Of a stretch of 40,780 nt of DNA, positions 388 to 16,337 are shown piece by piece (position 1 is the stretch's first letter; each line of letters opens with the position of its first letter). Location of the stretch: positions 1-40,780 of the forward strand of contig SKJG01000032.1 of assembly GCA_007116035.1 (NCBI GenBank), given 5' to 3'. The translations under genes were made by a program, and so were the position numbers. The DNA comes from Thioalkalivibrio sp. (GTDB taxonomy: Bacteria; Pseudomonadota; Gammaproteobacteria; Ectothiorhodospirales; Ectothiorhodospiraceae). Under the pieces are notes generated by a model. It saw only the letters and a program-made list of their open reading frames with translations, was not told the origin of the DNA and searched no databases.

Positions 388-485
388 TAACACCCAAGTA
401 GTTGGGTTGGTCTCGATCGTTGACACACTGCCTAGAATGCATTCCAGAATTGATGCACGCGCATTAGCGTGTGCGTCAGCCAGTT

Positions 486-605
486 TGCCTGGCGGCCATA
501 GCGTACAGGAACCACCCGATCCCATCTCGAACTCGGAAGTGAAACTGTTCAGCGCCGATGGTAGTTTGGGGTCTCCCCATGTGAGAGTAGGTCACTGCCA
601 GGCAT
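486..605 (+). rRNA. 5S ribosomal RNA
   Basis: Begins TGCCTGGCGGCCATAGCG and ends CACTGCCAGGCAT, with internal 'gatcccatctcgaactcggaagtgaaac' and 'gcgccgatggtagt'. The ends pair. Confidence 0.96.
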
Positions 606-613
606 TTACCCGT

Positions 614-648
614 AACCCGGTCGTCTTTGGACGGCCGGGTTTTTTTCG
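614..648 (+). terminator. Rho-independent terminator of the rRNA operon
   Basis: AACCCGGTCGTC-tttg-GACGGCCGGGTT followed by a T run. Confidence 0.9.
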
Positions 649-649
649 T

Positions 650-810
650 CCTGAATATCACGCAGGCTTCACAGAGCATCCCTTTGCGCGCAAGGCGCTC
701 TCCTACGGGTTCTTGCCGTTGTTGGAGCGTGCGTCGCAGGCGGAGATTTTGGGGATTTCGCTGCAATCAGCGCGATTTTCCCGGCCTCTGGGGGATTCGG
801 GATCATGCTG
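650..810. repeat. REP-pair element, diverged copy 'C' of the ~160-bp family
   Basis: CCTGAATATCACG...GGGATCATGCTG ends; internal CTTTGCGCGCAAGGCGCTCTCCTAC and GTTGGAGCGTGCGTCGCAGGCGGAGATTTTGG; collinear with 6725-6888. Confidence 0.7.
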
Positions 811-10634: not shown

Positions 10635-10663
10635 TTGACATTGGTTTAGACCGAGTCTAAAGT
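10635..10663 (+). promoter_or_regulatory. Predicted sigma70 promoter of the rubrerythrin cluster
   Basis: TTGACA (10635-10640), 17-nt spacer, TAAAGT (10658-10663); upstream of the rubrerythrin ORF at 10764. Confidence 0.55.
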
Positions 10664-10763: not shown

Positions 10764-11183
10764 ATGGAACTGAAAGGCAGCAAGACCGAGAAGAACCTTC
10801 AGGAAGCCTTTGCCGGCGAATCCCAGGCCAACCGTCGTTACCTGTACTTCGCATCCAAGGCCGACGTGGAAGGCTACAACGACGTCGCCACCGTGTTCCG
10901 TTCCACGGCCGAAGGCGAGACCGGACACGCGCATGGCCACCTCGAGTACCTCGAGTCCTGTGGCGACCCCGCCACCGGCCTGCCGTTCGGCGGCACCGAG
11001 GCCAACCTGAAGACGGCCATCGCCGGCGAGACGCACGAGTACACCGACATGTACCCGGGCATGGCCAAGTCGGCCCGCGATGAAGGCTTCGACGAAATCG
11101 CCGACTGGTTCGAGACTCTGGCCAAGGCGGAGCGTTCCCACGCCAACCGCTTCCAGAAGGCGCTGGATACCCTGAACGCCTGA
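10764..11183 (+). CDS. Rubrerythrin-family diiron protein lacking a rubredoxin domain
   Basis: [34 protein letters not shown]...; ExxH-type helices ([34 protein letters not shown]); ends without CxxCG motifs. Confidence 0.95.
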
Positions 11184-12617: not shown

Positions 12618-12633
12618 CGTGAAAGCGAGAAAC

Positions 12634-12663
12634 GTCGCGTTACGCCCTTTGGGCTAACCCGAC
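12634..12663. repeat. Palindromic intergenic repeat
   Basis: GTCGCGTTACGCCC-TTT-GGGCTAACCCGAC, near-perfect inverted repeat. Only one copy seen in the window. Confidence 0.55.
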
Positions 12664-12743
12664 TTGCAGGTTGCGGTTTTTCTTCGTCAGGGTTGGCGCA
12701 GAGCCATGAGAGTCAGACGAACCCAAAACAAGGAGAGCTCATC

Positions 12744-13046
12744 ATGTCGAGTGATGGATATCACGAGCCGGTAGAGGAATTGAGCGACGAGAGCCGGGAG
12801 ATGCACCGCGCGATCGTGTCGCTGATGGAGGAACTCGAGGCCGTCGACTGGTATCAGCAGCGTGTCGATGCCTGCAAGGATCCCGAACTGAAGGCGATCC
12901 TCGCGCACAATCGCGACGAGGAGATCGAGCACGCCGCAATGGTGCTGGAGTGGATCCGGCGCAAGAACAAGGTGTTCGACAAGGAACTCCGGGAGAACCT
13001 GTTCTCCGACAAGGACTACACCGATATCGGACACCACGATCATTGA
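12744..13046 (+). CDS. Encapsulated-ferritin-like (EncFtn family) protein
   Basis: MSSDGYHEPVEELSDESREMHRAIVSLMEELEAVDWYQQRVDACKDPELKAILAHNRDEEIEHAAMVLEWIRRKN...; matches remembered EncFtn signatures EELEAVDWY and AHNRDEE-EHAAM; RBS aaggag. Confidence 0.88.
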   Translation: MSSDGYHEPVEELSDESREMHRAIVSLMEELEAVDWYQQRVDACKDPELKAILAHNRDEEIEHAAMVLEWIRRKNKVFDKELRENLFSDKDYTDIGHHDH

Positions 13047-13086: not shown

Positions 13087-13680
13087 GTGAGCAAACTCAG
13101 CCGAGAAGACCTGTTTTCCCTGGAGATGTACTCGGAGATGCGACCCGGCTTCCGGGCCGAGATCATGCAGCACAAGAAGAACCGCGTGCTGCAGGTGGGG
13201 CCGAACGTGACCCTGCATTTCGAGGATCGCAAGACCATGCTGTACCAGGTACAGGAGATGCTGCGGGCCGAAAAGATTTTCGACGCAGCGGGCATCCAGG
13301 AGGAACTGGACGCCTACAATCCGCTGATTCCGGACGGCAGCAACTGGAAGGCCACGATGATGGTCGAATTCCCCGATATCGACGAGCGCAAGGTCGGGCT
13401 CTCCCGGCTGATCGGCATCGAGGACCGGACCTACGTTCAGGTCGATGGCTTCGAGAAGGTCCACCCCATTTCCGACGAAGATCTGGAGCGGGACACCGAG
13501 GACAAGACGTCTTCGGTGCATTTCCTGCGCTTCGAGTTGAGCGCGGACATGGTGTCCGCGGTGAAGAGCGGGGCCGCCATTGCCGTCGGTATTGACCACG
13601 AGAACTACACGCACCGGGTCGACGCCGTGCCCCCCGCCACGCGTGATTCCCTCGCGGCGGATCTTGCCACGGTCAACTGA
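13087..13680 (+). CDS. DUF3501 family protein (GTG start)
   Basis: SKLSREDLFSLEMYSEMRPGFRAEIMQHKKNRVLQVGPNVTLHFEDRKTMLYQVQEMLRAE...; next to rubrerythrin and the Fe-S protein. Confidence 0.8.
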   Translation: MSKLSREDLFSLEMYSEMRPGFRAEIMQHKKNRVLQVGPNVTLHFEDRKTMLYQVQEMLRAEKIFDAAGIQEELDAYNPLIPDGSNWKATMMVEFPDIDERKVGLSRLIGIEDRTYVQVDGFEKVHPISDEDLERDTEDKTSSVHFLRFELSADMVSAVKSGAAIAVGIDHENYTHRVDAVPPATRDSLAADLATVN

Positions 13681-13704: not shown

Positions 13705-15057
13705 TCAAAGCAGATCCAGGGCGTCCGACAGGTGTTCGACGGGGTGGATCTCCATGCCTTCGATGCGTCGGCGGATCCGGTTGCCCGCCGGGATGATTGC
13801 GCGCGTCAGGCCGTGCTTGGCCGCCTCGGAAAGGCGTTCCTCGCCGTTGGGCACTGGGCGCACCTCGCCGGACAGGCCGATCTCGCCAAAGCAGACGAGG
13901 TCCAGACCCAGTGGCCGGTCGCGCAGCGACGACATTGCGGCCACCAGCATCGGCAGGTCGGCCGCGGTCTCAGAGACCCGGACCCCGCCCACCACGTTGA
14001 TGAAGACGTCCTGATCGAACAGCGCGATGGCTCCGTGGCGGCTGAGCACCGCGAGCAGCATGATCAGGCGGTTCTGCTCCAAGCCCAAGGTGACCCGGCG
14101 CGGCTGCGGCGCGTGGCTCTCCGCGACCAGCGCCTGCACCTCGACCAGGAGCGGGCGCGTGCCTTCGCGCGTGACCATCACTACGCTACCCGAGACCGGG
14201 CGACTGTGACGCGACAGGAAGATCGCCGAGGGGTTGGCGACCGGTTTCAGACCGTCCTCCTGCATTGCAAAGACACCCAGTTCGTTGACCGCTCCGAAGC
14301 GGTTCTTCACGGCGCGCAGCATCCGGTAGCGCCCGCCGGGGTCGCCCTCGAAATACAGCACGGTGTCGACCATGTGTTCCAGCACCCGGGGACCCGCGAT
14401 CTGTCCGTCTTTGGTCACGTGCCCGACCAGGATCACCGTGATGCCACGCTGCTTCGCCAGGCGGACCAGCGATGCGGCACTCTCGCGCACCTGCGACACC
14501 GACCCTGGGGCGGATTGCAGCGCGGCCGTGTAGAGAGTCTGGATGGAGTCGATGACCAGCACCAGTGGACGCTCGCGCTCGGCGGTGGCGATGATGTTCT
14601 CGACCTGGGTCTCGGTCAGCAGGCGCAGGCCGGAGACGTCGAGACCGAGCCGGTGGCCCCGCAGGCTCACCTGCTGCGCAGACTCCTCGCCGGTCACGTA
14701 AAGGGTCTGCTCGGCGGGGAGCAGCGCCAGCACCTGCAGCAGCAGGGTGGACTTGCCGATGCCGGGGTCACCCCCGATCAGGACCACCGAGCCCGTGACC
14801 AGCCCTCCGCCCAGACTGCGGTCCAGTTCGGAAATCCGGGTGGAGATGCGCGGGATCTCCGTCGCCGGCAGATCCCCCAGGCGCGTGATGCGCGCTGCCT
14901 CGCCGGCATAGCCCCCGGCCCGCGGACCTTGCGCGGCGGCACTGGGTTGCAGTTCCTCCATGCTGTTCCAGGCGCCGCAGTCGCCGCACTGCCCGGACCA
15001 CTTCGGACTCACCGCGCCGCAGTCGCGGCAGACGTACTGCAGCTTGGCCTTCGCCAT
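13705..15057 (-). CDS. radA: DNA repair protein RadA
   Basis: MAKAKLQYVCRDCGAVSPKWSGQCGDCGAWN zinc finger; GGDPGIGKSTLLLQ; KNRFG motif. Confidence 0.98.
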   Translation of the reverse strand: MAKAKLQYVCRDCGAVSPKWSGQCGDCGAWNSMEELQPSAAAQGPRAGGYAGEAARITRLGDLPATEIPRISTRISELDRSLGGGLVTGSVVLIGGDPGIGKSTLLLQVLALLPAEQTLYVTGEESAQQVSLRGHRLGLDVSGLRLLTETQVENIIATAERERPLVLVIDSIQTLYTAALQSAPGSVSQVRESAASLVRLAKQRGITVILVGHVTKDGQIAGPRVLEHMVDTVLYFEGDPGGRYRMLRAVKNRFGAVNELGVFAMQEDGLKPVANPSAIFLSRHSRPVSGSVVMVTREGTRPLLVEVQALVAESHAPQPRRVTLGLEQNRLIMLLAVLSRHGAIALFDQDVFINVVGGVRVSETAADLPMLVAAMSSLRDRPLGLDLVCFGEIGLSGEVRPVPNGEERLSEAAKHGLTRAIIPAGNRIRRRIEGMEIHPVEHLSDALDLL

Positions 15058-16337
15058 CAGGAGTCGCCCCCCTGGCCCGGCGACCACGGGGGCGGGATGC
15101 GGACGGTGCGGACGGTATTGTTCTTGATCTGGATGATGTCCATCACCACCCCGTCGATCCGGACGCTGGCCGCAGCCTCCGGTATGTCCTCGAGGTGCTC
15201 GACGATCAGACCGCTCAGGGTCTTCGGCCCGTCCACCGGCAATTTGAGCCCCAGCGCGCGGTTCAGTTCGCGCAGGTGGATGCCGCCATCGACGACCACG
15301 CTCCCGTCGATTTGGCGCAGCACCTCGTCACCCATGGTCGGCGAGTCCGTGGTGAACTCGCCGACGATCTCCTCCAGCAGATCCTCCAGCGTGACCAGTC
15401 CCTCGATGTCACCGTATTCGTCCACGACCAGCCCGATCCGCTGCTTCTGCTTCTGGAAGTTGATCAGCTGCCGGTTCAGGGCCGTGCCCTCGGGGATGAA
15501 GTACGGGGGCGTGATGACCTGGCGCAGGTCCTCCGGCGTGAACGACTCCCGGTAGGCCAGTGGCAGGATGTCGCGCATGTGCACGAAACCCAGGACCCGG
15601 TCCAGCTCGCCCTCGATCACCGGCAGCCGGGTGAAGCTGCCACTGAGGATCTGCTCCAGTACATCGTTCCAGTCCTCATCCAGGTCCAGGACCACGATCT
15701 CGTTGCGGGGAATCATGATGTCCTCGACGGTCGTGCGTTCGAGATCGAGCAGGTTGACCAGCATGCGCTGGTGCTTGGCGGGGATCAGCGCGCCGGCCTC
15801 GGTCACCACGGAGCGCAGTTCATCCGCGGTCAGGGCAGCGCGCTGGCGATCATCCATGCGGATCCCAAGCAGGCGCAGTACGCCGTTCGCGAGCAGGTTG
15901 ATCACGTAGACCACCGGCCAGAGAACCCGCAACAGCCCGGTGTAGATCCAGGCCGCCGGGTAGGCGATCCGCTCGCTGTGGAGCGCCGCCACCGTTTTTG
16001 GCGCGGTCTCGGCGAAGATCAGCAGCGCAAGGGTCAGCAGGCCCGTCGCAATCGCGATCCCGGGGTCGCCGAACAGCCGCCAGCCGATGAAGGTGGCGAT
16101 CTGGGTGATCAGGATGTTGACGAAATTGTTGCCCAGCAGGATCAGCCCGATCAGGCGGTCCGGGCGCTCCAGCAGGCGCGCGGCCAGCTGGGCGCCCAGG
16201 TGACCCTGCTGTGCCTTGTGCCGCATGCGGTAGCGGTTCAGGGCCATCAGGGCGGTCTCCGAACCCGAGAAGAAGGCCGAGAGCAGGAACAGCAGGAACA
16301 GGGCGCCGAACAGCGCGGCTATTGGAATGTCATGCAA
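15057..16337 (-). CDS. CNNM/CorC-type transporter (DUF21 + CBS + CorC_HlyC domains), probable TTG start
   Basis: IPIAALFGALFLLFLLSAFFSGSETALMALNRYRMRHK...; 'DIMIPRNEIVVLDLDEDW'; C-terminal 'GLKLPVDGPKTLSGLI'. Confidence 0.92.
   Translation of the reverse strand: MHDIPIAALFGALFLLFLLSAFFSGSETALMALNRYRMRHKAQQGHLGAQLAARLLERPDRLIGLILLGNNFVNILITQIATFIGWRLFGDPGIAIATGLLTLALLIFAETAPKTVAALHSERIAYPAAWIYTGLLRVLWPVVYVINLLANGVLRLLGIRMDDRQRAALTADELRSVVTEAGALIPAKHQRMLVNLLDLERTTVEDIMIPRNEIVVLDLDEDWNDVLEQILSGSFTRLPVIEGELDRVLGFVHMRDILPLAYRESFTPEDLRQVITPPYFIPEGTALNRQLINFQKQKQRIGLVVDEYGDIEGLVTLEDLLEEIVGEFTTDSPTMGDEVLRQIDGSVVVDGGIHLRELNRALGLKLPVDGPKTLSGLIVEHLEDIPEAAASVRIDGVVMDIIQIKNNTVRTVRIPPPWSPGQGGDS

What the first reader, a model, noticed from the sequence alone, without database searches (positions are those of the whole stretch)
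12744..13046. EncFtn-like ferritin with no encapsulin shell gene and no targeting tail
The 100-aa protein carries EncFtn-family signatures (EELEAVDWY, AHNRDEEIEHAAM) containing the metal-ligand Glu/His and Trp-Tyr positions. Characterised EncFtns are cargo: they carry a short C-terminal encapsulation peptide and sit next to an encapsulin gene. Here the C-terminus is ...SDKDYTDIGHHDH, which is His/Asp-rich and not a recognisable targeting peptide, and the next gene is DUF3501, then radA. A free-standing EncFtn would change the usual picture, because EncFtn is a ferroxidase that normally needs the shell to store iron. It may hand Fe(III) to another partner, act as a detoxifying ferroxidase, or use the DUF3501 protein in place of a shell.
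Basis: partly seen in the sequence, partly recalled or inferred. Interest (0 to 1): 0.78.

Follow-up and report, generated by a model that had tools for sequence, protein, structure and literature searches.

The report
Shell-less EncFtn in rubrerythrin operon
This gene encodes a small iron-oxidising ferritin relative of a type usually known from inside protein shells, but here, as in most related bacteria surveyed, it has no shell and no shell-targeting tail, and it sits in an oxidative-stress operon, which suggests it works free in the cell.

Summary
Window 12744-13046(+) is an intact 100-aa EncFtn-family protein (PF22277 146 bits; TIGR04535 134 bits, cut-off 125) with every known metal and ferroxidase residue and no targeting peptide. 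It is not an isolated oddity. It belongs to the short class (s-FLP, "Non-EncFtn"; PDB 3K6C, 73% identical) already named in the literature, whose encapsulation was left unclear. In 370 genomes of its class, 106 carry EncFtn and 84 of these have no encapsulin. All 91 EncFtns away from a shell gene lack a targeting motif; 19 of 20 beside one have it. The window's own genome holds a gutted encapsulin operon on another contig: cargo and shell genes each carry an in-frame internal deletion, while the short EncFtn is intact. DUF3501 resembles 3FJV, not a capsid, so it is no shell substitute. Most likely the protein is a shell-free decameric ferroxidase in iron/peroxide defence, with Fe(III) probably passed to bacterioferritin, which the genome has. 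The decamer, activity and acceptor are inferred.

The parts
10764..11183 (+). Rubrerythrin of the short 'aerobic' type (139 aa, no rubredoxin domain)
   Evidence: Pfam PF02915 3e-30, no rubredoxin domain hit; NCBIfam rubrerythrin model below cut-off; matches the RBR-RFO-DUF3501 cluster described in PMC5114695
11274..12617 (+). [quoted passage not shown]
   Evidence: Pfam PF02754 1.6e-14, GlpC model 2e-71 but below its cut-off
12730..12735 (+). Ribosome-binding sequence AAGGAG upstream of the EncFtn ATG
   Evidence: read from the sequence
12744..13046 (+). Short EncFtn (s-FLP), 100 aa; ferroxidase residues E30, Y37, E60, H63; entry E29, E32; exit H55, E59, E62; His/Asp-rich C-terminus without targeting peptide
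   Evidence: PF22277 2.3e-43, TIGR04535 2.5e-39; 3K6C 2.6e-40; residues invariant or nearly so in 108 relatives; AF2 model pLDDT 89.5 matches 3K6C, TM 0.83/0.90
13087..13680 (+). DUF3501 protein (197 aa), 40 bp downstream
   Evidence: PF12007 2.8e-73; model matches 3FJV only
13705..15087 (-). radA, convergent, not part of the operon

Best explanation
The gene encodes a free-standing short EncFtn that works in the cytosol without an encapsulin shell. Two copies form a diiron ferroxidase site, and five such dimers are expected to form the ring seen in PDB 3K6C. It oxidises Fe(II) as part of an operon with a short rubrerythrin, an Fe-S electron-transfer protein (RFO) and DUF3501, so that iron and peroxide are removed together. 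Because a ring has no storage cavity, the Fe(III) is most likely passed on, with the genome's bacterioferritin as the natural acceptor. Shown here: family, predicted monomer fold, complete active site, absence of a targeting tail, no intact shell gene found, recurrent gene order. Inferred: decamer, activity, co-transcription, iron acceptor.
For: EncFtn family and fold. Catalytic and channel residues intact and conserved in shell-less relatives. No targeting motif in 91 of 91 EncFtns away from a shell gene (88, plus the window and two relatives), against 19 of 20 beside an encapsulin. 84 of 106 EncFtn-bearing genomes have no encapsulin, including several single-contig genomes. Short and tailed forms largely separate on the tree: 4 changes against 22.7 in shuffles. 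RBR-RFO-EncFtn-DUF3501 order in several families, 25 of 91 free copies beside DUF3501. Genomes with both forms keep the tailed one beside the shell and the short one elsewhere, in four of six in the RBR cluster. Own genome has a bacterioferritin over its cut-off. EncFtn without a shell is an active ferroxidase in vitro (PMC5012862).
Against: No activity has been published for any short EncFtn that I could find. In PMC5012862 shell-free R. rubrum EncFtn was slower than apoferritin and gave iron precipitate and aggregation, so a shell-free role needs an acceptor that is only guessed. Most short EncFtns (66 of 91) are not beside DUF3501, so the operon cannot be essential to their function. Only a monomer was modelled.
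Confidence: 0.66

Rival explanations
1. The protein is cargo of an encapsulin after all, through an unrecognised short C-terminal sequence, as PMC11202242 left open for s-FLPs.
For: An encapsulin trace exists in the genome; five same-genus genomes have intact encapsulins; the short C-terminus is conserved, with His in the last 10 residues in 81 of 88 free copies.
Against: 84 genomes carry the gene with no shell gene found. Own shell gene has lost about 200 codons. Every encapsulin locus fetched has its own EncFtn alongside, tailed in all but one fused case. The window's C-terminus differs from the common ...DKPIAHx ending.
Confidence: 0.05
2. DUF3501 acts as a substitute shell or scaffold for EncFtn.
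For: Adjacent in 25 of 91 cases.
Against: Predicted fold matches 3FJV and nothing capsid-like in the top 50. DUF3501 is found in many genomes of the class that have no EncFtn match over the cut-off, and 66 of 91 free EncFtns lack it as neighbour.
Confidence: 0.04
3. The protein is mainly an iron carrier or metallation factor that supplies iron to the rubrerythrin diiron site or to bacterioferritin, with oxidation secondary.
For: Gene cluster with rubrerythrin; conserved His near the C-terminus on what should be the outer rim of the ring (rim position of the C-terminus from PMC5012862); no storage cavity.
Against: All ferroxidase residues are invariant, which a pure carrier would not need.
Confidence: 0.2

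Closest known systems
Nitrosomonas europaea NE0167 (PDB 3K6C), the structure that stands for the s-FLP class
   Same: Short EncFtn without targeting peptide, 73% identical over 90 residues, same predicted fold
   Different: W36 is Leu in NE0167; different C-terminus; its gene neighbourhood was not checked here
Rhodospirillum rubrum EncFtn (Rru_A0973, 5DA5) and Haliangium ochraceum EncFtn (5N5F), encapsulin cargo
   Same: Same fold and, for R. rubrum, all ferroxidase, entry and exit residues
   Different: Those carry a linker and a targeting peptide and have a shell; the window protein has neither
Aerobic-type rubrerythrin cluster RBR-RFO-DUF3501 (Cardenas 2016, PMC5114695)
   Same: All three genes are present in order
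   Different: An EncFtn gene lies between RFO and DUF3501; the passages of that paper I read name a HYP gene in the figure and never mention encapsulin

Membership tests
EncFtn-like family (Pfam PF22277 / TIGR04535) | Sequence score above the curated cut-off | tested here: met
   146 vs 27 bits; 134 vs 125 bits
EncFtn-like family (Pfam PF22277 / TIGR04535) | Ferroxidase residues E32, Y39, E62, H65 (R. rubrum numbering) | tested here: met
   E30, Y37, E60, H63
EncFtn-like family (Pfam PF22277 / TIGR04535) | Two-helix fold that pairs into a four-helix bundle, D5 decamer | tested here: inconclusive
   Monomer fold met; the decamer was not modelled
Encapsulated cargo EncFtn (FLP-TP) | C-terminal targeting peptide such as DGSLGIGSLK | tested here: not met
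   Protein ends SDKDYTDIGHHDH
Encapsulated cargo EncFtn (FLP-TP) | Encapsulin gene in the genome, usually adjacent | tested here: not met
   Only an internally deleted remnant on contig C34; family 2A search negative but its controls were silent too
s-FLP / Non-EncFtn class | About 95-103 aa, EncFtn core, no targeting peptide, no long disordered tail | tested here: met
   100 aa; falls among the short forms with 3K6C on the tree, though branches are weakly supported
RBR-RFO-DUF3501 cluster | Rubrerythrin without rubredoxin domain, CCG Fe-S protein, DUF3501, co-localised | tested here: met

The most novel reading that the evidence does not exclude
Free-standing EncFtn is a long-standing, possibly ancestral, shell-independent enzyme of a four-gene rubrerythrin operon, forming with RFO and DUF3501 a cytosolic system that couples Fe(II) oxidation to peroxide reduction; encapsulin cargo EncFtn is the specialised branch.
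Probability: 0.25. Interest if true: 0.7.

Novelty: new member of a known kind. Interest (0 to 1): 0.45.

Why it matters
A 2024 review leaves open whether the short EncFtns are encapsulated. The survey answers most of that by genome content: most carriers have no shell gene to put them in. The link to the rubrerythrin-RFO-DUF3501 cluster gives a functional context for a structurally solved but, as far as I found, functionally unstudied class, and makes shell-free EncFtn function directly testable.

Tried and rejected
A hidden longer C-terminus by frameshift: rejected, since close relatives end at the same place. An intact encapsulin elsewhere: only the C34 remnant found; a gap in the 186-contig assembly is not fully excluded. 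Family 2A encapsulin search: negative but uninformative because the controls were silent too. Conserved neighbours across the 80 nearest named relatives: no gene recurs in most of them; the RBR cluster genes are found in nine loci. Promoter and terminator scan: one promoter-like site upstream of rubrerythrin at 10635, close to chance. Literature on function of short EncFtns: none found.

Full report
Observation. It scores in Pfam EncFtn-like at 2.3e-43 and in TIGR04535 at 134 bits against a cut-off of 125. Its best solved relatives are 3K6C (N. europaea NE0167), then the H. ochraceum and R. rubrum EncFtns. The AlphaFold monomer (pLDDT 89.5) matches 3K6C with TM 0.83/0.90. R. rubrum E32, Y39, E62, H65 (ferroxidase), E31, E34 (entry) and H57, E61, E64 (exit), roles from PMC5012862, correspond to window E30, Y37, E60, H63, E29, E32, H55, E59, E62, and are invariant or nearly so in 108 relatives.

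Surroundings. Upstream lie a 139-aa rubrerythrin without a rubredoxin domain (10764-11183) and a GlpC-like Fe-S protein (to 12617); downstream is DUF3501. This is the aerobic-type RBR-RFO-DUF3501 cluster of Cardenas et al. 2016 (PMC5114695) with EncFtn placed between RFO and DUF3501. RFO, EncFtn and DUF3501 keep this order in two genera of the window's family (rubrerythrin lies outside most of those short stretches), and all four genes do in named Thioalkalivibrio and in other families of the class. RFO and EncFtn are about 30 bp apart in several relatives, but 126 bp in the window.

Shell. The window's own genome (3.03 Mb, 186 contigs, 99.67% complete) has one encapsulin match, 60 residues on contig C34. 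Compared with an intact operon in a same-genus genome, both genes there carry internal deletions: 312 bp in the tailed EncFtn, leaving MTSETLH joined to ADGSLGIGSLREED, and 609 bp in the encapsulin, leaving about 58 N-terminal residues joined to its last few. Both lengths are multiples of three, and the junctions share 9 bp (imperfect) and 3 bp. So this lineage appears to have lost both shell and tailed cargo while keeping the short EncFtn; an assembly error cannot be ruled out without reads.

Survey. In the family, 37 of 47 genomes have EncFtn, but only five have an intact encapsulin, each with its own tailed EncFtn. In 370 genomes of the class there are 113 EncFtn hits in 106 genomes (four hits below the cut-off); 22 genomes have an encapsulin match, one of which is the window's remnant; 84 have EncFtn and no encapsulin. 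Of 91 EncFtns not beside an encapsulin, none has a targeting-type motif (88, the window and two relatives); of 20 encapsulin-adjacent ones fetched, 19 do and the other is a fusion. The motif pattern was written by me from the published consensus (PMC8346489, PMC11202242) and from the tails seen, so the 19 of 20 is partly by construction; the absence in the free set is not. Several carriers without encapsulin are single-contig genomes, so gaps do not explain the absence. The 80 closest named relatives, mostly Proteobacteria, all lack a tail and have no encapsulin within 6 kb or to the contig end; they were chosen by similarity to the window protein, so are biased to short forms. On a tree of 115 sequences the two forms need 4 changes against 22.7 in shuffles, although many forks are unresolved.

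Neighbour DUF3501. 25 of 91 free EncFtns lie within 1.5 kb of DUF3501 and none of the shell-adjacent ones do. The DUF3501 model matches 3FJV, a protein of unknown function, with no capsid-like match among the top 50, so the shell-substitute idea has no support.

Mechanism. The best reading is a shell-free ferroxidase ring in an iron/peroxide defence operon. PMC5012862 showed that R. rubrum EncFtn alone oxidises iron, slowly and with precipitation, has no peroxidase activity, and needs the shell for storage. Rubrerythrin would supply peroxide reduction, as known for that family, and the genome has a bacterioferritin (249 bits, cut-off 125.55) to take up iron. These last steps are inference.

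Known and new. The short class is named in PMC5012862 (Non-EncFtn) and PMC11202242 (s-FLP), with the note that encapsulation is unclear. New here, as far as the searched papers show, are the counts, the operon link and the gutted encapsulin operon. The nearest named genomes are Thioalkalivibrio, so that is the likely genus.

Noticed in passing
L003 (own genome contig C34), about 470-740, minus strand: Encapsulin operon with two in-frame internal deletions, leaving a 21-aa peptide that keeps the targeting tail and a shell fragment of about 65 aa.
   Followed up: partly
L039:1477-1735 (genome G036, contig C38): A closely related same-genus genome, which also has an intact encapsulin operon (L038), carries a second, internally deleted scrap of that operon.
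   Followed up: no
L142 (genome G220, contig C227): One 248-aa frame joins EncFtn residues 1 to about 97 to the C-terminal part of an encapsulin, apparently a deletion fusion of cargo and shell genes.
   Followed up: no
free EncFtns L144-L231: Most short EncFtns end in ...LFTDKPIAHx; 81 of 88 have a His in the last 10 residues, suggesting a conserved role for the C-terminus unrelated to shell targeting.
   Followed up: partly
window 12618-12743: The RFO-EncFtn gap is 126 bp here but about 30 bp in several relatives, so the window may carry an insertion in the spacer.
   Followed up: no
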